Origin: Hirudinaria manillensis
Lineage: Eukaryota > Annelida > Clitellata > Hirudinida > Hirudinidae
Reading direction: 5' to 3'
Assembly (NCBI GenBank): GCA_034509925.1
Contig: CM067526.1
Span: 2,771,001 to 2,835,000, forward strand
DNA: 64,000 bases
Under the pieces are notes generated by a model. It searched no databases. It was given only the letters and a program-made list of their open reading frames with translations, and was not told where the DNA came from. Made by a program: the position numbers and the translations under genes. This document shows, piece after piece, positions 2,349 to 61,840 of this stretch (position 1 is the first letter of the stretch; each line of letters begins with the position of its first letter).

Positions 2349-5300
2349 ATGGAGCAAGAGGTGCATCCTTCGCAGTTACTGTCTCCAAACGGCGAGAATG
2401 GAATCTATTCCTCGTGTTCAGAAGCTTTCGATGAAATTCTTTCACATCTGCCAGAAGCAGCAAGTCCAGCGCCCAAGGCTGAGTTGGATGTTTTGAGCGA
2501 CGACGATGAAGACTCGTCGCCGGCTAAGAAGGAAAAGTCATCGTCGTCGTCGTCGACCTCGTCGGTCAAGGTGGAGAAGGTTGGAAAACAAGAGAAGGAG
2601 GTTAAGAAAACCGAGGAGGAAGAGGAAGAAGATGAGGTTTCACCTGAACTCCCGATGTTTATCCAGGACTGGAAGTCGGCGGAGAAATTTGAGGTGAAGA
2701 AAATTTCCAGCCGGAAAAGCGACGGAGAGGTCACTAAGGACACGCCGGAAGTCTGGAAAACCATCAACGGAGACGCCAATGCAGCAGACGACATCAGTCT
2801 CGTCGCCGCCCTGCACGACGCTTCAGTCGATGAAGTGACGTCTGAACATTCCGTACAGAACGAGGTCCACGTTGTTGATCGATCGATGGAAGCGAGAGAC
2901 GATGTCGGAGCGGAAATTGATCTGGAGTCAGGCGCACTGCAAACAGAGTTCCGTGATCGACTCGACCAGCCTCCGGGGAAAATGGAAAAGCTCGAAAGCA
3001 ATGAGGAAATGGCCATGACTGTACTACAACAACAGCAAGAACAAGAACAACAACAAGAGCAAGAACAACAGGACACAGTCTTCACGGTTCAATTCCAAGT
3101 CTCGGCTTCTATAGTCGAACTGCCAGACGACGAGAATAGTACAGACGACGACGACGTTACCAGCAAGAACGGATCCGAGGAAACCGTCCTGAGAGATGAT
3201 CACAGATCCACTTCCGGCGAAACTAAATCATCTCCCGACGACGTCATTTCCACCATCATAGACGACCAACGAAGAAATCTCGTTAGGAAGGATAAGGATG
3301 ATGAAGAGGAGGAGGAAGAGTACGACGGGGCCGCGGACAAAACCTACGTCTACGAAATTTTCCAGCCCGTCCAGAGCTCAGCTGACATCCAGACCGGAAC
3401 CTCGTCAAGGTCGAACGAGGCGCACCTGACGAGGGTCATGATGCGGATCAGGGACCAGGAGATTGACGGATGCATCGAGAGGAGGACCCTGGTGAGTTGA
3501 GGAGCTTGGGGAGCCTGGTGAGTTGGGGAGGTTGGGGAGTCTCTGGGGTGCCTGAGAGACGCTGGGGAGTTTGAAGAGCGATGGAGAGCGTTGATGCGTG
3601 CCGATCACAGCTTAAGTCTCGTTTCGGTGTATGGGCTTCACATCATTTTTTGTGGTCATATTTTTTTTATAATAACGATATAATAATTAATAATAATGAC
3701 AATTAACAGAAATATTTGTTCAATATTGATATTCATTTTTTGTTACTTCGAATATACATACCATTTATTTTCAGGATTTGTGATATATTTAAATCTGCCA
3801 TAAAATTCCACCGATTTAGTTTTGCATTCGTAATCCAATCGAGAGTGTGGGCTTTAAAAAATATTTCGTCGAATTAGTAAATATAATTATTAAAAATAAT
3901 TTTTTTTTGTTTTTTTTTTAAATTCAAAATCATTTCCTGTCGACGGATAAATTCAATTACGAATCCCCCTGTAAAAAGTTTTCCGTAAATTTTTTTCCTG
4001 AGGGAAGGGATTTTCACGACCAAAAACTGAAAAAAACTGGAAAAACCCAGGAAACAAAAACACCTTTTTCCACCTCCTTGGACGTGACGGACGTGACTTT
4101 CTTTCCAGCTTTCGATTTTTCAGGATTTTCCCAAAACCTCTGCTCCTTGGGTGGTCAGAGGAGTTTGAAAGCCCCTCATAGTCAGTCACTTTAATTGCTG
4201 TGCTCTGTCACTCCCAAGTCATCAGCATATTCATGAGCCTATCAGGCCTCTTCCCTAATTATGACGTTATTATTATTATTTTTTTTTTTTTTTTTTTTTT
4301 TCCTTTATTTTCTCGGCCAAAAAAAATCATCCAACAGCAAACGCGATCATCAAACACCTCAACTAACATCCACTGTCCCCCATCCGGGCCCGAGATCACC
4401 CCGGGACATACAACCGCATTCCCCAGCGCCAACAACACCGCGCTATAAACAAGCGACATCAACCATAATCAATCACTATAGTCCAATTCGCCGGCGCCAA
4501 CGTTTATGAGTTCTGCGCTTATGGAATTTCCACATAAGGTAGGTGTCCAGCAAAACCGATGTTGCCAGGTACATCATGCCGTTTCTGGACAGACCGATGC
4601 CCCGCCATGACAAGTAAGATCTGGAGGATATTACACCTCTGAAGTTGCATACAAAGGCGGTTACTATGATCTTCGGAGAGATAGCACCCCCAGGGCTATT
4701 GTTAGACATCCAGATGTGGATGTCTTTGGAGTTATATTTCCCTGTCTTGGATGAGTGGACCTCGTCCAGTGAGGCGGTATCAGAGACAATGGTGACGTCG
4801 CATACGATTGAATCGTCCTTACTCCACGCGACTAGGTCAGGGACTCTGATGCCTTCCTCAACTGGTATCCTTCGTTTCCAGCCGATGGACGAGGTTGTTG
4901 TGCCTCTCTCGTCTCGATACATCCATTCCTGGACAAACCTGGAAAATGTGATCCAGGCTCTCGGTGACTCTGCAACCGGCGTCACACTTGGTGTTTACCT
5001 CTGGATGATATCTGGAAACCCGGAGATTGCATGGGAGGACGCCTGCTCTGACCTTTAAGCACTTTAAGTAGTCACTCGGGAACAATCTTGAACGCCCATC
5101 CGCGATCCATTCACTGATACCGACACCCTGGAAAAAGGACTGGAGTCCAAATCCGTCTACCGAGCTGTAAAGGCTCTCGAGAGTCTCTTCCTTAAGTCGT
5201 TTTTTGGCTGACGACTCCGAATTTAATTGCCCGAACTTCCTGTGTTCTCCAAGGACGATGCTGTTGTCCTTTAGAGTGTCGAGCAAGAATTCGTCTTCAT

Positions 5301-7356
5301 TGCTTTTCGAGCGAGCCATCATAGATCTCATTCTGCTGGTTCTGATGAGTGGAACCCACTTTCTGAGCTGCAGTAGTCCCAATCCACCAAATTTCAGCCC
5401 CGCATGGAAGAAGGCGGTCGGCGTGTCTTTTGGGAGGCGCAGCCATTGCCTGACGGCAGATCTTACTTTCGTGTCTGCAGCCTTTAGAGATTTCAAAGAG
5501 ATTTTATTGAAGGTAAGATAGTGCACGAGGCTTGGAATAAGGTTCGATCTTAGGGTGTAGAGTTTTTGATTTGGCTTTAAAGGAGCTCTAGATATTGCAT
5601 GCAAGGATTTATGCATTCTGTCGCCTAGTGACGCGTATTTCATTTTTGGGCCAATGTCAATTCCAAGATATCGGTAGGTGTCGAGAATGTTCATTGCCTT
5701 GATTGGCAGCTGGCTGACACTGAGGTAAGAATCCGGGTCAACAATCCAAGGACTGTTTTTCTTTTGCACTTTCGCTCTCAGTGAAGAACATTTTTGGGCA
5801 TTCATAATTAGTCCAACTTTTGCCAGAGATTCCTCGACTTGTTTCAACAACATCCTCATTCCAATATCAGTAGAGGATAGCAGGATCAAATCATCTGCGA
5901 ACGCCAAATAATTGCATTTGACTGATGAACTAACATCGCCAGTCACACCGATGGATTGGTCTACTTCTGACATCACCATGTCGATAACCGCGTTGAAAAG
6001 TAGAGGAGACATTGGATCTCCTTGCCTGACTCCTCTATTAACTGGTATGTCCCGACTCAATTTGCCTCCAATCTTCATTTGAACTGAACAATCGCGGTAG
6101 GCCTCTGAAATGTATCTCAACAAAAAAGGAGGAGTTCCCAATCTGTGAGCCGCTCTTACAATGGACTGGTGTGAAACCGAATCGAAGGCTTTGGTCACAT
6201 CAATGAACGTGAGATTGAGATTCTGTTTCTGTTCCTTCTTTTTCTGTATGATTGCTTTCACGAGCCATATATTATCCGCCAGGCCATCACCGTGTCTGAA
6301 AGCCTTCTGACGATTTGAGATGGACCAGTGTGCGAGCATTCTCTTGCTCAGCAATCGGTGAAATAAACGACCGATGATTGATCCCACCGTAATTGGTCTA
6401 AAATCCTCTGGCTTCAGACTTTCTTGTTTCTTTGGAATGCAGGTGACAATTCCTTTCCTGAGTGCATCGGGAGGGCATCCAGTAAATAACCAAAGCGTCA
6501 TGTGAGTCGCCAGGTCCTCCGGTGCAATTTTGTTCAGATCAATTTTTTTCATGCCGTCAAAGCCGGGGGCAGAATCTTTCAATCCTTTTGCCGCGTGAAT
6601 GATTTCATCGACCGTGATTGGAATGTCCATTTCATCGATAGGCTCAATCGTTTCATCCAATGGCCGGGAGTCGGTTTTGGAAGCTTGAGTGAAAACCTTC
6701 TCCCAATACTCCACCAATGTTTCATCGGAAGGACATACTGCATTTTTCTCGTAGTCACCTTTCATTACCGTTTGTGCCCCAAGACTTGGACTTTTCCTAA
6801 ACAGCTGCTGGATCCTCGCATACTGCTCCTTCCGACGCCTCTCTTTTATCGCACGCTTTGAGTTGCGATTGATCCATTTGACGAATTTGCGGCCACTTGT
6901 TTGCACCTTGTCTTGCTTCTTCGTCTGATGTTTCTTTGCCACTTTTTGAGTCCTCTTCTTTGACACTGTTATGCCAGCAATCCATCTCTGATATTCTATG
7001 TTGATAAGTGACCTTTTAATCTCGTATACCTCAGTGGAATCAATGAGCGAACTGAACTCTTCATCAGACAATCGAAGAAAAAATCTTCTTCTTTCAATGA
7101 ATTGCAAGGGACCAATAATATTTTCTGGGTCTAATGCTTTGCAACAGGCTGAGATACCAGCATCGGCCTTAACGTCTGCCATTATAATATTTGAGAGAAG
7201 ATGACGATATTGAGGCTTATTTCTAATCACTTTTATAGCATCCACACTGAGGGAGGGAAATTGCTGCTGAAGTGAGAGGTTGATTCTGTTTTTGTGTGTT
7301 CCCCCAAGACTAAGTTCAGCCTTGGCCAGTACATTCCATGACTCAGTGTTATGCAA

Positions 7357-7392
<36 letters not shown>

Positions 7393-8670
7393 TATTTTTT
7401 TATTGTCCATTTTCCACTGGATAATTTGTATAAATATATTGCAATATTTGCATAAAATATGCATTGAAGAAATTTACGACGTGGCTTTAAGAGAAGGAGA
7501 ATAATGCATCAGAGTGGAACTATGGTTTTTATGTTGGTGATGACGAAGACGACGATGGTGATTTTCATTTACAACAATAATAATCGAATTTAATTCTAAA
7601 AACGAATTATAATATTATTATTAACACATAATAACAATATTATGATATTAACAATATCAATGTAAAAGACTAAATAAACTAATTTTATCATAAAAAGCTA
7701 GAGAAAATTGAGAATTGATAAGAATCTAAGGAGGTACCTACGACGTTGATGACGTAACAATGACATTCACCAAAAAGCCCAGTCTTTCAACATGAGAGTC
7801 CCAATCCGTAATTACAATTCATTCCTTCCAATCTGGTCAGAAAACTTCAAAGGTAAAATAAAATAAAAAAATCTTTTCCTGAAAGAAATATTTTTATGCA
7901 GAAAATATTATTTTGCATAAATGAAGAAAAAATGAATAATAATAAAACGAATATTATTCGATAATATTTATTAAAAAAAAAGACCCATAAGAGATGAAAG
8001 TGCCAAGTGACGTCACAAGATTTAAAATGACGTCACAGGAATCGAATGAAGGAGGAAAAAAGAGTTTGCAATTTCTTTGCGATTTTTCGCGGTTGTTTTT
8101 TTCACGTCTGATTTCGGGGAAATTTCTCGCAAGTCTTTCTGAAAATTGTAATAATTATGTAATTATAAAATATTATTATTATTATTATTATTATTGTGGT
8201 TATAAAATAGAATTACAGTAATTCTTGTAATTATACTTTATTATAAATATCGTAATTCTTAAAAATGATATAGTAACGCTTCCTATGATGCTTCCTGCCA
8301 TTTCGTCTCCAATGCTTTCAGTGAATATAATTATTATTGTTTCCGAATATTATTACTAATCGTAATATTTTGTAATTGCAATATATATATATATTTCATT
8401 TAAATATTACAAAGTGTAATATTTCCTTTAATTCAGAATGAAGAGACTCCATCTGGTCATCCTAAAGAGTTAAAAGAAGAGATTATGAAGAGGTAAACTT
8501 TGAAACAGTTTTAAATGTTTAAAAACATAATAGCTTGAGTAATTCACTAATTATTACAAATATTAATAATAACAACAATGTAATTAATAATAGCAATGTT
8601 ATTATTTTGTTCCATGATTTTTTGCTTAAATATCTTTAAATTCAATTATTTTAGTTAGGAATTTCAGGAA

Positions 8671-16980: not shown

Positions 16981-18067
16981 CATCGTTGTTGTTTATTATT
17001 TATCTTAATCATCATCATCATGATTACAAATTACCAATCACTTGGACTGCTTGTCTGACTCAATTCGTAATTCGTCCTAACATCCTATTAAAGAGTTGCA
17101 CTTGTGAGCCGCCATTTAAGAGTTCATTTCATTCAAAATTGAATTGTTCAGCCAGATTAGTAAACCTTGCATAAATTCGTCTACTTAATATTAGTACTGC
17201 TACTACTACTAATACCATCATCACCGCTGTTGTTGAAGTCGTCGTAGCCATTATTACTACTACTATCATCATCATTATCGAGTTCATGATTATTAAATAT
17301 CATCATGTACTGCAAGCACAATTAAATAATTAAATAATTAATTATTTATTAATAACGAAAGGGAGCCGCGGGACCAAAAGGCTTCGCCGGGTCAACGGGT
17401 GCCATGGGAGTGGGCGGTTCAAAGGGTGCAACTGGTGAAAGGGGTCCGATTGGAGCGACTGGAAGTATCGGGACTGGTGGAACGAAGGGTGGAGTTGGTC
17501 ACGAGGGCGTAAAGGGACTTCCGGGGTCAATCGGTCTAACAGGTTCCACCGGGGCTACCGGACCGGTGGGCATTCCTGGACCCCCTGGGAAGAATGGCAC
17601 CGATGCTGTCAGCCCTGCTGTCGGTCCAGGTATGAATGTTTGACCGATTGGAAGAATATTGGATTTAAAATAGTTTATAGACGTAATGATAATGTATACT
17701 AAAAGAAATAATTATATTTTCATTAAACGTTTTAAAAATAAAAACTTACCGACACTGGTGATCAACTTCTGAATGTCAAAATAACGTCAAGTGATTAACT
17801 TGACGATTACGACTTAATGCCAGTCATAACATATTCAGAACTTTAGCCTGACTTACTGAATGCATGCACTTTCTGATGAATGAATTCACCTCGACAGGAA
17901 TCAATTCACCATCTCAGATGACGGTGTGGAGGTGGTGGAGAAGCAAAAATCTCATCGTCGGTTTGTATGCCTGGTCGGTCATCCTGTCAGTTCTCCTCAT
18001 TGCTGTCCTCGTCTGTTCTGTTGTCTTGCTGGTTAAAGTGAAGAATGAGAAGGACAAAAGTCTCTAG
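15095..18067 (+). CDS. Signal-peptide, collagen-repeat, single-pass membrane protein (seven exons)
   Basis: Exons 15095-15137, 15340-15611, 15681-15924, 16024-16059, 16607-16761, 17362-17629 and 17898-18067 join in phase to 395 residues. The N-terminus MDYKLIILILSFIEA is a signal peptide. Residues 16-198 form a beta-rich-looking domain I do not recognise (for example GILAGFTVYLIQD and GDKIGIFFRETVW). Residues 242-331 are 30 uninterrupted Gly-X-Y triplets, rich in Gly-Ala-Thr and poor in proline. Residues 358-385 are a hydrophobic span (VILSVLLIAVLVCSVVLLV), then a short basic tail KVKNEKDKSL. The expected topology is an extracellular head and collagen stalk with a C-terminal anchor, likely trimeric through the collagen region. 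The acceptor of exon 5 could instead be 6 bases downstream. Ligand and function unknown. Confidence 0.8.
16909..16983. repeat. (CTT)n(ATT)n microsatellite
   Basis: Compound trinucleotide repeat in the fifth intron of the collagen-repeat gene. Confidence 0.95.
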
Positions 18068-25500: not shown

Positions 25501-32046
<6,546 letters not shown>

Positions 32047-52434: not shown

Positions 52435-52531
52435 ATGAAACCGACAGGATTTCTGCAGTCATGGCTGCTTCTCTTCATTTTTGGAAGTGAGTAAATAATC
52501 CGATAATAATGTTAAGTTATTGAAATTTTGC

Positions 52532-52585
<54 letters not shown>

Positions 52586-55500
52586 AACAACAATCATAAT
52601 ATCATTCGGTAGTCTTATGGCCGAACCCACTAAGCGATTTTTAAAAATGTTTCTTTTTCGAATGTCGTGTGTGTCAAATGGCAGGGGTTTGGCAGCGGGA
52701 AGTGATTTCAAAGAGATCAATGGCTTGCTTAAGTGTAATCATAATTATAATGCAGGTTGAGCGCAATTGAAATTATTTATGAAACAATTTTGTTTCACTT
52801 CACTGCCTGGTATGCCTGGCTAATCATTTCGAGGTATGCTTGGGTTTTTTTTTTGTAGGTTTAGTAATGATTAGAAGGTTCACTTTCCTTATCCATTTGA
52901 TTCTCCAACAGCTTTGATTGATACACATGCATACACGTTCTTTGTCTCGTGGAAAGTGGCTGCTTGCTATTCATTCATTTAAAGGATCTAATACGATATT
53001 TAGAATGCCAAAAAGCCTTCGTACGAAAGTCGATTGAGTGCGTGAGGATTCGGATGAGCGAATGATCGGCATAAAAATTCTTCTCCCATTATTTAAGGAC
53101 GTGGTACTAGGCAGTCAGATCCATTACGTGGCTTCGATAAAAATATCTAAGGGCAGACGGCTCGTCACTTGTGGCAATTTTGACTTTGTACCATTCGGGC
53201 CGCCCGTACTTTGAAAAGTCCTTTGTCTTCTTGTCCACGTCCGAGGAATCCACGAGAGAATAAATGCGTTGACAGGTTTCGAGTCTTTCAAAAGAATCTT
53301 AAGTTGGACGTACTGGTTTCGTCTCGATCGGCTGGACCTTATGTCCTGAGACTCGAGTCGATGAATTATTGAAACCTTGTCAGTTTTATTCCTCAGTAAT
53401 TTTGACAGTGTCTCAACTGTCTGTCTCTCGGTACAAGCAGATGGTGACAAATGAAAAATTATGCCTTCGTTGTTTGACACAAGTCATCGCAACGTTGAAT
53501 GGAGTTTCTTCACCATTCATAGAAAAGTGAATTGAATTCGCGCGCCAGCGTGCGCCCACTAATGCTTCTTATTTCTGTTGCCTGCCATTTTGCTTTTGTT
53601 ATGACTCGATGTTTGCACGGACTTGAAGATTTGCTTAAAAAAATAATAAGCCAATTAAATGAAATTATTCAAAGAATAGGTATTCATCCCTGAATATCGT
53701 TTGAAATCTATGAATGTCAGCACGTGCTTTGAGATTTGTTCTGTTTATCTTTTTTTTTTTTATATCTCCATTAATGTTGCAAAAGATACAAAAGTCAAAA
53801 AATTCGTGGAAAAGATGAAGGAAAATCCTTATTCGAGTTTTTTTTTTGCTTTTCCAGTATGCCATTCCATGGAGGAAAAAGATCACGATTATAGCGACGG
53901 CGTGCTCGGGCGCCAAGAAAAATTAAATCCGTTAGTGGTTTTCCTGTGGTTATCAGATCTAAAGAATATCAAGTTGAACTGAAAGTTGTTTAAAATTGTG
54001 CATCTAAGAATGATTCAGTCTCTAATAAATGAATAAATAAATAATTAATTAATTTTTAATGGATTTATTCACAGTTAATGAATTATCTTGAGTTTTTAAT
54101 GGAGAAATATACCTTTGAAATCTTCAGACGTCCATTTGAAAATATCTATCCTCTCGAGTTCTCCGGTGAATACCTCTCGAATCAGCCCGCGGATTATCAG
54201 TCGGATGAGACCCTGGAAGGCCCGCTCAACAATCTGACCGGCTATCCGCTCAAGAACGCATCTAGTCGCATGAAGTCGGGTCGCAAAAAGGGGCGAAAGT
54301 CCACCCAGTCAATGGTCAATCGGTCCACCAACGTTCGACGAAAGCAGGGGAAAAATGTCAGAATCCAGGCAAAGAGCCGTTTGAAAATAAAGTCTAAGGT
54401 AGTTTCGTTTGTTTTTATTTCTTTGTTTCTTTGTTTCAACTTCAAGAATTCCAATTCTTCCTGAACTAACGATTGGAAATGATAAGGATACAAGCTTAGG
54501 AACCTCTTAAAGTCTTCCATTATCAGGCCTCGTTGTATCTAAGCATCCACCTGGTTTATTAATAACTGGTCAGAGATAATTAATTATTTATTTATTTATT
54601 TATTTAAGCGAAATCATTTTCGAAAGGAATGAAAAAAAATAAGTAAACAAACTTAATAAGACTTGTTAAGAAAATATCCAGCACCAACAGAAGTATTTGA
54701 TAAGATTGGTCAACACTTGAATTGAAACACGAGAATCGTTTGCAAACAACAACTGTTCAACACGTGGTTTTTCTGGCAGGTGTAATAAAAACATCGTTTA
54801 CGAGACAAGGTTACTCGGTTGAGCTGAGATTGTATGGATTTGTTTCTAGACCGGTGCTATTTATAGTCTATTTAATTTCTATATACGATTATTAACGTCA
54901 AATTATGATTTTAAGATAATTTATTTGACTTTTCTGGTTCGACTTGACCACTGAATGTCTAGTTATTTTGGTGATATCTTTGAGATATTTGAGGTTTTTG
55001 AGCTCAGGTAGATTGACCGGAAAAATGGGTAGTGACCACGTTGTGAGTGATGATGTCTTGAGTGACGTTTGTAGAATCGCAGGAGAGGATTGCGATTGAT
55101 GTTTCGACATCATCAGCTGGGATTGTGATTCCTTCCGTCACAACAACGTGCCCTGCTAAATCGACTCGTGGAAATGTTTACGTTTCTATTCCTGTCTCTT
55201 GAAAACATTTTACAATTCGCTTTTCTGTTTGAAAATTGTTTGAGCGACCAACCGTGCTTCAGAGAAACGCACTTAATGACATTCAGAATACATGTTGTAT
55301 TTAGAGTTAGAATCCAACGGTGCGTGTCTCATTGATTGGAAATTCGTTAATTTCAAATAGGATCTCGACTTCCTACCTGGATTCGGTTTAATCGCTCAGA
55401 GGTCGTGTCCCACCAAGTACAATTGGCTGGCCATTGAAAGAGCCACGAATATAGAAAACAATCGGGTCGAAGTCTATCAGCCCCACATTCACAACTTGGA

Positions 55501-58324
55501 AGGATTGGAGAATTTCTCTCAGATGTTAGTCCGTCCGTCCGTCGTTCCGTTCGTTCGTTCGGCGAGTTTTAAAGCTTAATGAATTTGCTTGTTTTCTTGT
55601 GCAAACATATTATTAGATTAAACACAATATTCGATTGCAAGACAAACAGTTGAGAAATATTTTGCTCAGTGCGCAGATTAGTGTGAAGATTAGGAGGAGG
55701 TGATAAATTCATTTTATTTTTTATATTTAGGTTTTGTGAAATCAATAAAATCAAATTAAAATCAATTAAAGTTTAATCTCTTAAAATCAATAAAAAGTTT
55801 AATCTCTTAAAATCTCTTCAACGCGATGTCCCCCGTCCAAAGCTTTAAAGGCCAATATAATTTCTTAAACTGTCATAAGTCATCAAGTTACAATAACGTT
55901 ATTTGTGTACGAATTTGAATGTAATGTCATTCGTCGTCGTGTCGGGTCTCGTTTTGACTTGACGATGTAAAGGTGACTTTATGCAATTAGATATCAGCAC
56001 ATGGTATTCAAAGATATCTTTTATAGACTTTATGCAATTAGATATCAGCACAGGGTATTCAAAAGATATCTTTTATAGACTTTATGCAATTAGATATCAG
56101 CACAGGGTATTCAAAAGATATCTTTTATAGACTTTATGCAATTAGATATCAGCACAGGGTATTCAAAAGATATCTTTTATAGACTTTATGCAATTAGATA
56201 TCAGCACAGGGTATTCAAAAGATATCTTTTATAGACTTTATGCAATTAGATATCAGCACATGGTATCCAAAGATATCTTTTATAGACTTTATGCAATTAG
56301 ATATCAGCACATGGTATTCAAAAGATATCTTTTATAGACTTTATGCAATTAGATATCAGCACATGGTATCCAAAGATATCTTTTATAGACTTTATGCAAT
56401 TAGATATCAGCACATGGTATTCAAAGATATCTTTTATAGACTTTATGCAATTAGATATCAGCACAGGGTATTCAAAAGATATCTTTTATAAACTTTATGC
56501 AATTAGATATCAGCACAGGGTATTCAAAAGATATCTTTTATAGACTTTATGCAATTAGATATCAGCACAGGGTATTCAAAAGATATCTTTTATAGACTTT
56601 ATGCAATTAGATATCAGCACATGGTATTCAAAGATATCTTTTATAGACTTTATGCAATTAGATATCAGCACAGGGTATTCAAAGATATCTTTTATAGACT
56701 TTATGCAATTAGATATCAGCACATGGTATTCAAAGATATCTTTTATAGACTTTATGCAATTAATGTCGAGACGGGGCTCGCCTTTTGGATCCAAGGCTGG
56801 GTAGGAGTGCCACGTAAATGATTTGGAATTCGCTACGTCGTGGGTCAAGAAATTATTCAAAGGATTGATTGAAATAATTAATTTGCATTAATTTGCATTA
56901 ATTATTTTCTAACGATCAGGTTCTTCGTTGAGAGTTGCTTGAACGACGTCGGTCGAAGAGACTGTCCAGGATGCTGCAAGGGAATCGACCACAGCGTGTT
57001 GGTATTTACTTTGTTGTTGTTGTTGGTTGTGTTGGTATTTATGTTGTTGTTTGTGCTCTCTCATACCTGATTAGTGATGCCGTGTGGCCAGTTGATAAAC
57101 GACAAATGATGTTTCTCAAGTTATGATTTGAGACCTCACATGACGACGACGACGACTGACTTTTGACGTCGATGACGTGAAGTCGTGTACCGAACACGAC
57201 GTCAATCGTCTTGGTGCTTTCAACCTCTGACGTGGGACCTTCGCTTCTGTTTTCATGGCTACGTTGTAGCATTAGAACCTCTTAGTGGCTTGCAGGACCA
57301 ATCGGTCGACCTGAATAAATATTTTATAAAAATAATATAATTATTATATTAATTAATATATTAATTATTATGTTATATTAATATACATGTTCTCTTGAAA
57401 TAAGATGTGGATTAAATTAAGTGCCTTGGTACGACTTACGTGGATTGGTGTGTGGTTCAAGGAGTTCATTTAGGAAGCAATCAGTTGTAATCAGTTCAAT
57501 CAGTTGTAATCAGTTCAATCAGTTGTAATCAGTTCAATCAGTTGTAATCAGTTCAATCAGTTGTAATCAGTTCAATCAGTTGTAATCAATTCAATCAGTT
57601 GTAATCAGTTCAATCAGTTGTAATCAGTTCAATCAGTTGTAATCAGTTCAATCAGTTCAATCAGTTCTAATCGGAACATGTTATCAACAGGTGTCTATTA
57701 TTTCCAACTGAGATTCTTTGAAAAAAATCTCTGTTCTTTCATCGCCATCAAAAAAAACTTTATCGCAAATTGATGTTCATGTCAGCCATCAATGATGATA
57801 ATAATAATAACATTATCATTATTATTACTTATTACCAATAATAATATTGATATAATTATTTATTATCATTTATTAATAATTAATTAATTATTAACTAATT
57901 GATATTGTTAATTAATATTATTAATTATTATCAATTAACTTCCTAATAACCTAAGAATTACAAATTGACTAAAACCTTGTCTCCTTGTCGACTCATCACG
58001 TGAACTTGAAATCAGATTGGTCTGCTACTGTCAATCAAGAGACCTGTTGAAATACAAAAGATATTTAAACGTACAACCGCTGATTATTAGGATTATTCTA
58101 ATTATCACAATGTGTTTTTATTCTATTCTATTCTATGCTTGCTATCTTCATTGAAGTGGTTGCTTTGTTTCTGTTATTATTATTATTATTATTGATTTAT
58201 TATTATTATTATTGTTATTACTATTATAATTGATTTATTATTATCATTATTGCTATTATTATTATTATTATTATTATTATTGTTATTATTACTACTATTA
58301 TTATTGCTGTTATTATTATTATTG

Positions 58325-58370
<46 letters not shown>

Positions 58371-58430
58371 GATTTATTATTATTATTATTATTACTACTA
58401 TTATTATTGCTGTTGTTATTATTATTATTG

Positions 58431-58466
<36 letters not shown>

Positions 58467-58639
58467 GACTGTTATTATTTTTATTGTTATTATTGTTATC
58501 GTTGGTACTGGTTCATTAATGACAAACACAATCGTTTAACACCTCAATTAATACCTGTGGCGGTGACGCCTGCGATGACGTTGTTTAGTGTGACTCACGT
58601 TGACTTCCTAGTCGTACGACTTGTGCATATTAAGTGGTT

Positions 58640-58690
<51 letters not shown>

Positions 58691-59111
58691 GTTAATCGAT
58701 ACGTGGAATCGCATATTACGTCTATACATAATCTATTTAACAACAACAAAATTGAAGGTAAAAAGGCATAACGACCTGGTTTTTAGAGTACATTTAATAT
58801 GCCTATCAGCTCTCTAGTTACTCAAATGAAATTATATTTATTAAATTAAATTTATTAATTTATTGCTATTAAATTATTTATTAAATTATATTAATTAAAT
58901 TATATTTATTAAATTATTATTTATTAAATTATTATTTATTAAATTATTTATTGGATTAAATTATTTTATTTCCAGATATTCGTCACGGTGCAAGCAGAGA
59001 ATGTCCTACGTACAAGCACTTGTTACACTCGAAGGTAGCGAAGAGTTCTTTTGGAGTCACATCAAAGTCAACTCCAGTTGTGTCTGTGAATTCTCTCTTC
59101 AACAACCTTGA
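52435..59111 (+). CDS. Invertebrate neurotrophin precursor (six exons)
   Basis: Exons 52435-52486, 53858-53934, 54075-54398, 55361-55524, 56920-56997 and 58976-59111 give 276 residues, similar to vertebrate neurotrophin precursors. MKPTGFLQSWLLLFIFG is a signal peptide. The prodomain (exons 2-3) has sequons NLT, NAS and NRS and ends in basic clusters (GRKKGRKS, NVRRKQ, KSRLKIKSK) suited to proprotein-convertase cleavage. The mature cystine-knot domain reads RSCPTKYNWLAIERATNI, RVEVYQP, MFFVESC, PGCCKGIDHSVYSSRCKQ, MSYVQALV and FFWSHIKVNSSCVCEF. This aligns with vertebrate VCDS, TATDI, QYFFETKC, GCRGID, TFVKALT and the RIDTACVC region. It is a secreted growth factor, expected to dimerise and bind Trk- or p75-like receptors. 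The exon 2 donor (GTGGTT) is weak; the nearby GTTAGT would give a stop. Exon 5 ends at GTTGGT. Confidence 0.88.
52532..52581. repeat. (AAT)n microsatellite
   Basis: About 16 AAT units, 45 bases after the donor of neurotrophin exon 1. Confidence 0.95.
53107..53477 (-). pseudogene. Antisense open frames in neurotrophin intron 1, possible ACT-domain remnant
   Basis: From 53477 the minus strand reads EGIIFHLSPSA, VETLSKLLRNK, VSIIHRLESQD and NQYVQLKILLKDSK. The pattern recalls the regulatory ACT domain of aromatic amino acid hydroxylases (xxIIHLESR...). At about 53285 coding character moves to another frame: RIYSLVDSSDVDKKTKDFSK, RPEWYKVKIATSDEPSALRY, stop at 53107. A one-base frameshift would join the two. 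It has an in-frame stop just upstream and no clear acceptor, so it may be a decayed gene fragment or a nested gene with a sequencing error. Family assignment is weak. Confidence 0.35.
55980..56764. repeat. 51/52-bp minisatellite, 15 copies, in neurotrophin intron 4
   Basis: Fifteen full units plus a partial one. Each contains GCAATTAGATATCAGCAC and the palindrome AAAGATATCTTT. Two unit types differ at CATGGTAT versus CAGGGTAT and by one A (51 or 52 bp), and are arranged in blocks. It ends about 155 bases before exon 5. All frames are open through it, so its ORFs are artefacts. Confidence 0.97.
57478..57668. repeat. 19-bp tandem repeat in neurotrophin intron 5
   Basis: About 10 copies of TCAGTTGTAATCAGTTCAA. 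Confidence 0.95.
58170..58470. repeat. ATT-rich microsatellite
   Basis: Long ATT tract with regular GATTT and GTT interruptions in neurotrophin intron 5. Confidence 0.95.
58644..58691. repeat. (AAT)n microsatellite
   Basis: About 16 AAT units in neurotrophin intron 5. Confidence 0.95.
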
Positions 59112-59633
59112 TTACCTTGAACCTGCTGCACGTGCTGTTGTTGTTGTTGTTGTCGTTGTTGTTGTTGCTGTTACTGTTGTTGTTCATCGTCGTTGTCGTC
59201 GTCATCGTTGCCTAGATCAATCACTATCATCACCGCTGTCTCTGCGACAATTAATTAATTAATTAAATAATAATAATAATAATACTTGAAGCGGTTTCAA
59301 AGCTTTCTTTGAGAACTTGTTGTGACTCGAGTCAAGTGAACGTCTATCTTTAGGTTTGCATGGTTGGACGACGACGACGGTGATGATGACGATGATGATG
59401 ATGGTGATGATGATGATGATGACATATATTATCTTTTTATTTAACTTTCTTGTAATTAACCGCCTCGTTTAAAATGTTACAAAACCTTCTGATGACGTCA
59501 TTTCATCGGATCACGTGGTTTACGAAGGTAAACATTGTTTACAAAATATATTACAAGATTACAAGACATTACAAGACATTAACTGTGTGTAAGACTTTGT
59601 TAGGTTCACGAGACTGCCGAAGTGGGTATTTTG

Positions 59634-59718
59634 TAGACTTTCAATCACTTTCAATCAATTATTTTGCAGACTTTCAATCACTTTCAATCAATTATTTTGC
59701 AGACTTTCAATCACTTAT
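59634..59718. repeat. 33-bp tandem repeat
   Basis: Two and a half copies built from GACTTTCAATCACTTTCAAT and ATTATTTTGCA. Confidence 0.9.
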
Positions 59719-59818
59719 TCGGACGTTTTGGTGTGCATTTTATTAAGAGATTCAACTGTTGTTTCAAATTGCGAGCTATTTTTAGTTGCTTCCCTTGAAA
59801 TCGGAAAATGTTAAATGG

Positions 59819-59831
59819 TATCAATCAATCT

Positions 59832-59889
<58 letters not shown>

Positions 59890-59890
59890 T
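59819..59890. repeat. (AATC)n microsatellite
   Basis: About 16 AATC units. Confidence 0.95.
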
Positions 59891-59974
59891 CAATCAACCA
59901 ATCATTCCTTCTTGTGATATTAATTGTCGGATGTCGAAATGGACTTTTGAATGGCTTGTAAATAGAATGTATTT

Positions 59975-60085
59975 TAATAATTTAATTATTATTTAAATAA
60001 TTTAATTATTATTTTAATAATTTAATTATTATTTTAATAATTTAATTATTATTTTAATAATTTAATTATTATTTTAATAATTTTA
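59975..60085. repeat. 20-bp AT-rich tandem repeat
   Basis: About five copies of TTTAATTATTATTTTAATAA. Confidence 0.9.
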
Positions 60086-60631
60086 TTACTTAAATAATTT
60101 AATCTGTGACGACTACCTAAATATAAGTAGGCAAGTCATGTTTTTGTTTTCTGCCTCCATTTCTATCTCGAATTCACGCTGGTGTTGATGTTTATTTATT
60201 TATTTTGTTTGTTTGTTTGTTTGTGACTAATTACAAGGATTATCATATTTTTCTCTCTAAAGACACTTTTCAATAAATTTATTTTTTCCATAAATTGTAC
60301 GTTATATTCTTTGTTTCATTGGATGTTGCTGTGTTTCTGTAACTTTGTTTTTCTTTTGTATCCATGTATCTCTATGTATCTTCCTATCCTGCGTCTGTTT
60401 ATGTTTGCTTATGTTATGTTATTGTTATTTTTGTTGTATTTGTCTTCTTGATGATCTGAAGAATGACATCAAAACTTCGTAACACTTGATCAGCTCGCGA
60501 GGTGTCGCTATTTAAAATATCTTTGTTGCGGTACGCGTACATTTTCTATGCTTCTCTGCTCCACGTGTCTTAGGCTTAGGAAAATTTTTGTCTGCCGCGA
60601 CCTCTGGCGGAGGTGGAAAGGAATTAATTTA

Positions 60632-60852
60632 ATGTTTCATATTTTTTCGCTTCTGTTGTTCAATGTTTCCAATTCAACAACCAGTGATTCAGGCGGTTGT
60701 CTTTGTAACGGCTCGTGTCCCCAATCGAGGTGTATCGATTGTATCACCATCGTTTACGACTTGCAACATCGTCATCATCATCGTCATCATCATTATCATC
60801 ATCAGCGTTTGTCATCGTCATCGTCTACTCTCGACTGTCGTCAAGCATCAAC
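60632..60852 (+). CDS. Possible first exon of a secreted Cys-rich protein
   Basis: The frame starts MFHIFSLLLFNVSNS, which looks like a signal peptide, followed by GGCLCNGSCPQSRCIDC with five cysteines. It then enters a CAT-rich low-complexity His/Ser stretch. A possible donor (GTAGGT) is at 60853. No further exon or family recognised. Confidence 0.25.
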
Positions 60853-61439
60853 GTAGGTGGCCAAACAGAAGTAACAATTCGATTCTAGTCTCCGTGCTTA
60901 ATGCTTGAAGAAATAATTAAATAATTGAATAATTATCTTTCAATTACCACACGTTAATGGACTGAGTAATTCATCAATAATTCATCAATAATTCATTAAT
61001 AATTCGTTTCAAGCAACCCAAACACCCCTCAGCCACCCGTCCTGATGTCCCCTGGGGGGTGTGGGTGGCTGTCCGTGGATGTCGTACATAATTTAATTTT
61101 AATAATTTTCTGTATAATTTAATGTGTAATTGAAGAAATATTTGAATTTCTTGGTTCTTTGTTTCTCTTTGTTAATCCCATTAAATGTTCTCCAAGGAAT
61201 CACATCGGAGTTATTCTGAACAGGTCGTTCAGTGCAGTCGTCTTGTTGAGAGGAGTTGTTGTGTTGAGGTGGAGGTTTAGTTGTTGTTACTGTTGCTCTG
61301 TTGTTCGTTATGGAGAGGTAGGGTGGTGAAGACCCGGGGTACTGGGTTGACCCCGGTACGTGGGGCCACCTTGCGATCGTTTCGGAATTATTCGACGAGA
61401 CACTGGCGAATGGTTTGTTTGAAATCGCAGACGTTTCTT

Positions 61440-61840
61440 TCGTTGTTTGTCGTCGAGGAATTGTTTTGAATGTTGTTGTTGTTGTTGTTGTTGTTGAATG
61501 GTGTTTTGAATGTTGTTGTTGGAGTTGTTTTTGTTGAATGGTGTTTTGAATGTTGTTGTTGGAGTTGTTTTTGTTGAATGATGTTTTGAATGTTGTTGTT
61601 GTTGGAGTTGTTGTTGTTGAATGATGTTTTGGATGTTGTTGTTGTTGTTGTTGAATGATGTTTTGAATGTTGTTGTTGTTGGAGTTGTTGTTGTTGAATG
61701 ATGTTTTGAATGTTGTTGTTGTTGGAGTTGTTGTTGTTGAATGATGTTTTGAATGTTGTTGTTGTTGGAGTTGTTGTTGTTGAATGATGTTTTGAATGTT
61801 GTTGTTGGAGTTGTTGTTGTTGGAGTTGTTGTTGTTGGCA
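61440..61840. repeat. GTT-rich higher-order tandem repeat
   Basis: GTT runs alternate with GAATGATGTTTTGAAT and GGAGTT blocks, with a period near 60 bp. On the minus strand it yields a 258-aa Asn/Gln/Thr-rich frame (61099-61875), which I treat as repeat translation rather than a gene. Confidence 0.85.

What the first reader, a model, noticed from the sequence alone, without database searches (positions are those of the whole stretch)
52435..59111. A complete neurotrophin gene in an invertebrate
Six small exons, most missed by simple ORF calling, encode a signal peptide, a glycosylated prodomain, basic cleavage clusters and a mature domain with the neurotrophin pattern (ATNI, FFVESC, CKGID, SYVQALV, SCVC). 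Neurotrophins were long thought vertebrate-specific. Invertebrate members are known in molluscs, annelids, deuterostomes and Daphnia, but are sparsely characterised. The coding domain is split over three exons, whereas the vertebrate mature domain is in a single exon.
Basis: partly seen in the sequence, partly recalled or inferred. Interest (0 to 1): 0.9.

Follow-up and report, generated by a model that had tools for sequence, protein, structure and literature searches.

The report
Single neurotrophin gene of a leech
A blood-sucking leech carries what looks like one complete gene for a nerve growth factor relative, and a matching receptor gene; this fits what is already known for other worms and molluscs, but gives a favourite nerve-repair animal a gene that can now be tested.

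Summary
The finding is real. Six GT-AG exons at 52435-59111 (+) join into a 257-aa precursor (not 276) with a signal peptide, a basic prodomain and a neurotrophin cystine-knot domain over exons 4-6. Pfam NGF scores 51.6 bits, cut-off 27; all 18 distinct solved-structure sequences at E<=1 are NGF-family. One copy was found. An unnamed related protein matches exon 3 at 63/89 residues, against 6/17 and 5/21 outside it. Assembly figures match Hirudinaria manillensis. The genome also encodes a Trk-type kinase beside two Ig domains; a p75 receptor was not established. Differences: no R-X-X-R furin site, two extra cysteines. Best reading: the leech orthologue of the bilaterian neurotrophin, a secreted ligand of the leech Trk. 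It is a new member of a known family: a Helobdella leech fragment was printed in 2009, and Platynereis, Capitella and Eisenia genes are described. It matters because a 2020 leech regeneration paper states that no canonical neurotrophic factor has been found in invertebrate nervous systems. No transcript evidence was available.

The parts
52435..52486 (+). coding exon 1: start codon and most of the signal peptide
   Evidence: GT donor, phase 0; hydrophobic stretch seen by eye; weak match, E 0.022,
53858..53930 (+). coding exon 2: end of signal peptide and start of prodomain (alternative donor after 53936 adds two residues in frame)
   Evidence: both donors keep the frame
54128..54398 (+). coding exon 3: prodomain with three N-glycosylation sequons and basic clusters
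   Evidence: related protein P0001 identical at 63/89 residues inside, 6/17 and 5/21 outside the exon
55361..55524 (+). coding exon 4: end of prodomain and first part of the cystine-knot domain (first knot cysteine)
56920..56997 (+). coding exon 5: second and third knot cysteines, two extra cysteines, CKGID motif
58976..59111 (+). coding exon 6: fourth to sixth knot cysteines, SCVC motif, stop codon
   Evidence: (29 bits, only NGF match reported in the genome)
60272..60277 (+). AATAAA, the only one within 59112-61500 after the stop codon (candidate polyadenylation signal; an ATTAAA lies earlier at 59262)
   Evidence: sequence match, no transcript evidence

Best explanation
This is the neurotrophin gene of the leech Hirudinaria manillensis, orthologous to the bilaterian neurotrophin ancestor of NGF, BDNF, NT-3 and NT-4; only one copy was found. 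SHOWN by sequence: a coherent gene model, membership of the NGF family, six aligned knot cysteines, and a Trk-type receptor kinase in the same genome. INFERRED: the precursor enters the secretory pathway, is glycosylated, folds with the basic prodomain and dimerises through the knot domain. It is trimmed at a dibasic site (the RRK of exon 3, kept in the relative, is the best candidate) rather than at a furin site. The secreted dimer binds the Ig domains of the leech Trk, whose kinase, NPXY site and C-terminal YLEL motif would start Ras/MAPK and PLC-gamma signalling, supporting neuron growth, survival or synaptic strengthening.
For: Gene model with five GT-AG introns and one open frame. Pfam NGF 51.6 bits, cut-off 27. 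18 of 18 distinct PDB sequences at E<=1 are NGF-family, best venom NGF E 4.1e-9. BDNF (recalled) aligns at 46.2 bits; Spaetzle C-106 (recalled, checked) gives 14.6 bits. Six NGF-aligned cysteines. One copy found. Exon 3 conserved in a related protein. Trk kinase joined by eye from five exon frames: TrkC 335, TrkB 330, TrkA 325 bits, then MuSK 257, one EGFR-labelled chain 256 and ROR1 237 (best 60 of 107 shown); two Ig pieces over the I-set cut-off. Published annelid precedents, including induction in earthworm regeneration.
Against: No transcript data, so splicing and expression are unproven. No R-X-X-R site in the whole precursor, whereas Platynereis (RSKR) and Eisenia (furin site) have one, so maturation must differ. 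Two extra cysteines between knot cysteines 2 and 3. Spaetzle also scores just over its Pfam cut-off (29.5 against 27). The family signature quoted by Wilson fails at its first position. Searches with exons 4 and 6 found no relatives. Genome searches work exon by exon, so a diverged second copy could be missed. p75 with cysteine-rich domains was not found. The Trk leucine-rich part was recognised by eye only; Pfam did not confirm it. No tree was built and binding to Trk is not tested.
Confidence: 0.85

Rival explanations
1. It is a Spaetzle-type cystine-knot ligand for Toll receptors rather than a neurotrophin.
For: Pfam Spaetzle scores 29.5 bits, just over its cut-off of 27; the domain has eight cysteines rather than six.
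Against: NGF scores 22 bits higher on nearly the same residues; no Spaetzle chain among 18 distinct PDB sequences at E<=1 although Spaetzle chains are in that library; 14.6 against 46.2 bits in pairwise comparison with recalled sequences; Wilson 2009 recovered no Spaetzle from lophotrochozoans but calls it too early to conclude absence.
Confidence: 0.04
2. It is a secreted salivary factor aimed at the host (as snake venom NGF is in venom), not an endogenous signal.
For: The animal is a blood feeder and the best PDB match is a venom NGF.
Against: A matching Trk-type kinase is kept in the same genome; neurotrophins occur in annelids that do not feed on blood. Only one copy was found, a weak argument, since the passage names twelve multi-gene but also nine single-gene antithrombotic families. 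A search for leech, salivary, transcriptome and nerve growth factor gave 2 papers, neither on leech saliva by title (not opened).
Confidence: 0.05
3. The exons are remnants of a decayed neurotrophin gene that is no longer made.
For: Introns are rich in simple repeats and hold a 52-bp minisatellite of 15 copies; no transcript evidence.
Against: All six exons are open, all splice sites canonical, phases fit, all six knot cysteines kept; exon 3 is conserved at protein level in a relative, with divergence beginning at its borders.
Confidence: 0.04

Closest known systems
Helobdella robusta neurotrophin-like cystine-knot fragment (Wilson 2009, PMC2772990)
   Same: A leech neurotrophin; a knot fragment on Scaffold 16 is reported, grouped in trees with Capitella and Lottia neurotrophins (passages seen).
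   Different: In the passages seen only a fragment is reported, without signal peptide, prodomain or exon structure.
Platynereis dumerilii NT (Lauri 2016, PMC4812194)
   Same: Signal peptide, prodomain with a glycosylation site, knot domain, one single hit in the transcriptome, with a Trk partner (part 1 of section 11 read).
   Different: Platynereis has an RSKR cleavage site and a p75 with four cysteine-rich domains; here no R-X-X-R site, two extra cysteines, p75 not established.
Eisenia fetida nerve growth factor (PMC6160089)
   Same: Clitellate neurotrophin, with TrkB-annotated receptors in the same animal (section 17 read).
   Different: Described with the characteristic furin site and as not resembling other invertebrate NGFs in primary sequence; induced in regeneration, whereas expression here is unknown.
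Vertebrate NGF/BDNF/NT-3/NT-4
   Same: Six knot cysteines and the FF-C, C-[KR]-GID and CVC blocks align.
   Different: 22/71 identities to BDNF; the vertebrate precursor sits in one exon (Wilson passage), here in six.

Membership tests
Neurotrophin (NGF) family | Significant match to the curated NGF domain | tested here: met
   51.6 bits, cut-off 27, profile positions 8-108 of 112
Neurotrophin (NGF) family | Six cystine-knot cysteines | tested here: met
   Cys 148, 193, 206, 218, 248, 250 align with the NGF cysteines; 202 and 205 are extra
Neurotrophin (NGF) family | Vertebrate signature [GSRE]-C-[KRL]-G-[LIVT]-[DE]-x(3)-[YW]-x-S-x-C (as quoted by Wilson 2009, who says most, not all, residues hold in the invertebrate alignment) | tested here: inconclusive
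   C-C-K-G-I-D-H-S-V-Y-S-S-R-C: every position fits except the first (C instead of G/S/R/E)
Neurotrophin (NGF) family | Secreted preproprotein with N-glycosylated prodomain | tested here: inconclusive
   Sequons at 77, 85, 106, those at 85 and 106 kept in P0001; signal peptide by eye only, no predictor available
Neurotrophin (NGF) family | Furin-type cleavage site before the mature domain (usual, not strictly defining) | tested here: not met
   No R-X-X-R or R-X-[KR]-R in 257 aa, no R-X-X-R in the related exon; dibasic RK, KK, RR only
Neurotrophin (NGF) family | Closer to neurotrophins than to Spaetzle | tested here: met
   no tree built
Neurotrophin (NGF) family | Dimer that binds and activates Trk | not testable with these tools
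   needs protein; a Trk-type receptor kinase is present in the genome
Trk receptor (C11 gene, outside the window) | Trk-type kinase, two Ig domains, leucine-rich region with cysteine caps | tested here: inconclusive
   Kinase met and two I-set matches met; leucine-rich region not confirmed by Pfam
p75NTR | Cysteine-rich domains, transmembrane segment and death domain | tested here: inconclusive
   C4:10563464 death domain matches NRADD E 3.6e-7 and p75 E 0.017; no TNFR_c6 match in the genome, but the tool warns that nothing rang anywhere; no convincing cysteine-rich exon in the 23 kb upstream; human p75 (recalled) gave two weak matches on C10, E 0.096 and 0.39, and missed the C4 one

The most novel reading that the evidence does not exclude
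Leeches have rewired precursor control: the neurotrophin has lost the furin site and p75 may be lost or reduced to a death-domain protein without cysteine-rich domains, so that signalling runs through Trk alone with a precursor that is cut by other convertases or acts uncut.
Probability: 0.2. Interest if true: 0.6.

Novelty: new member of a known kind. Interest (0 to 1): 0.4.

Why it matters
The leech is a classic animal for identified neurons and nerve repair. [quoted passage not shown] A defined ligand gene and a defined Trk gene make that directly testable. The missing furin site, absent from the relative too as far as exon 3 shows, raises a specific question on how the precursor is activated.

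Tried and rejected
Spaetzle identity: rejected. Paralogues: none found. Further relatives through exon 4 and exon 6: none found, so the extra cysteines and mature domain could not be checked in a second leech. p75 by TNFR_c6, death domain, human p75 and a cysteine-spacing scan: one death-domain candidate, inconclusive. Of 17 death-domain matches 12 came with loci and were compared with p75; 5 were not examined, nor was the weak C10:6334568 match. The other candidate, L030, sits beside TIR-like frames (by eye) and was dropped as p75. Ribosomal RNA to name the species: not completed; the species rests on assembly figures and eglin-like genes instead. AlphaFold was not run: the spliced protein is not given letter for letter by the window DNA, which the tool requires. 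The bacterial promoter scan is not informative for an animal gene. No tree was built: too few invertebrate sequences were at hand. Paper searches gave nothing specific; the one paper (PMC12651989) was seen in the listing only.

Full report
What is there. On the + strand of the window, six exons (52435-52486, 53858-53930, 54128-54398, 55361-55524, 56920-56997, 58976-59111) with canonical GT-AG borders and entry phases 0/1/2/0/2/2 join into 774 nt coding for 257 aa. A second in-frame donor of exon 2 would add two residues.

Is it a neurotrophin. The protein scores 51.6 bits on Pfam NGF (cut-off 27), over profile positions 8-108 of 112, and 29.5 bits on Spaetzle (cut-off 27) over nearly the same residues. 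Against solved structures the 18 distinct sequences matched at E<=1 are NGF, BDNF, NT-3, NT-4 or ovulation-inducing factor, which I recall to be an NGF; the best is venom NGF, E 4.1e-9, aligned over residues 146-253 with no gap at either exon join of the mature domain. Spaetzle chains are in that library but did not appear. A pairwise comparison gives 46.2 bits with BDNF and 14.6 with Spaetzle (both sequences recalled). Six cysteines align with the six knot cysteines; 202 and 205 are extra. The Trk-facing residues of NGF as I recall them (W21, W99, R103) align with W, W and K; numbering and roles are recalled, not tested.

Is it more than chance. Exon 6 alone is the only NGF match reported in the 148-Mb genome and is over the curated cut-off. 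A search with the whole protein at E up to 10 returned six matches, which are the six exons. Both searches go exon by exon, so a diverged second copy could escape. It is identical at 63 of 89 aligned residues inside exon 3 but only 6 of 17 upstream and 5 of 21 downstream (5 upstream gap columns, 1 exon gap column and the residue that spans the splice left out), so protein conservation starts and stops at the predicted borders. Searches with exons 4 and 6 found no relatives.

Processing. Residues 43-132 of the prodomain hold 20 K/R and 7 D/E, with RK, KK and RR pairs, but there is no R-X-X-R motif in the whole precursor nor in the related exon. Platynereis has RSKR and Eisenia is described with a furin site. 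Cleavage at the RRK that both sequences keep, or no cleavage, is my inference. Two of three prodomain sequons are kept in P0001.

Which animal. The genome has 148,429,096 bases in 23 contigs; C1 is 14,755,599, C6 11,463,318 and C13 8,303,845 bases. The Hirudinaria manillensis assembly of PMC10671345 (passages seen) has 22 scaffolds plus a mitochondrial genome, 148.59 Mb, N50 11.46 Mb and 13 chromosomes of 14.76 to 8.30 Mb. Another assembly of the same species in PMC10087013 (157.5 Mb, 13+243 scaffolds; passages seen) does not match. Eglin-c-like matches (12, up to 70% identity, all within C2:13.367-13.413 Mb; query recalled) support a leech. The total differs from the published figure by about 0.16 Mb, so the name is very likely but not proven.

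Receptors. A TrkB kinase query (recalled) gave 134 matches, among them a run of exons on C11:1056.5-1059.7 kb with up to 75% identity. Five exon frames joined by eye give TrkC 335, TrkB 330 and TrkA 325 bits in the PDB, against 257 for MuSK, 256 for one EGFR-labelled chain and 237 for ROR1 (best 60 of 107 shown). Upstream lie two Ig pieces over the I-set cut-off (25.3 and 32.0 against 23.7), a hydrophobic stretch taken by eye as transmembrane, an NPNY motif and, at the C-terminus, PPYLELID, close to the PLC-gamma site P(VIS)YLD(IV)L(GE) quoted in PMC4812194. Cysteine-rich caps of a leucine-rich region were seen by eye but Pfam did not confirm them, and no clear leucine-rich exon was seen between them. 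For p75, 17 death-domain matches were found; the 12 with loci were compared with human p75 (recalled), and two stood out. The C4:10563464 one matches NRADD (E 3.6e-7) and p75 (E 0.017) in the PDB. No convincing cysteine-rich exon was seen in the 23 kb upstream, the TNFR_c6 search was silent but with a warning that its silence proves nothing, and mature human p75 gave two weak C10 matches (E 0.096, 0.39) while missing the C4 one. p75 stays open.

What is known. Wilson 2009 (PMC2772990; passages) reports neurotrophins in Daphnia (six exons, knot over four), Capitella, Lottia and a knot fragment in the leech Helobdella, and contrasts them with the single-exon vertebrate precursor. Lauri 2016 (PMC4812194; passages, and part 1 of 2 of section 11) describes the Platynereis module. 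PMC6160089 (passages; section 17) reports an earthworm neurotrophin and Trk induced in regeneration. PMC7535936 (passages) treats the system as a bilaterian innovation. The Hirudo transcriptome paper PMC2996935 (word search of the main text) names a neurotrophin once, only in describing Trk. PMC3081291 (passages) uses 'neurotrophic' for leech antimicrobial peptides. In the searches made I saw no paper describing a complete leech neurotrophin gene; I opened only some of the papers listed, and the library lacks most subscription journals, so this is not proof. [quoted passage not shown]

How it most likely works. A secreted, glycosylated, dimeric ligand acting on leech Trk in the nervous system. 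Shown: gene model, family, one copy found, receptor kinase gene. Inferred: transcription, secretion, maturation route, dimer, binding and role. The case is a well-supported new member of a known family with two specific differences worth testing.

Noticed in passing
55975-56762: A 52-bp minisatellite of 15.3 copies, 97% matches, lies in intron 4, and a 19-bp array of 10.3 copies at 57478-57672 in intron 5; possible length markers between individuals.
   Followed up: no
4858-7473 (-): An 871-aa open frame with a reverse transcriptase domain (RVT_1, 120.8 bits), perhaps a non-LTR retrotransposon.
   Followed up: partly
28249-28746 (-): Exon of a class I/II aminotransferase (49.7 bits).
   Followed up: partly
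17356-17643 (+): Collagen-type triple helix repeats (43.7 bits).
   Followed up: partly
G000 C11:8124684-8136137 (-): Seven kinase-like matches in frames of 447-451 aa, spaced 1.81-1.82 kb apart: looks like a tandem array.
   Followed up: no
L030 (G000 C10:4736728-4739949): A death domain close to two TIR-like open frames (by eye), perhaps a multi-TIR adaptor gene.
   Followed up: no
G000 C4:10563464-10563682 (+): Death domain most like NRADD and p75 without convincing cysteine-rich exons upstream.
   Followed up: partly
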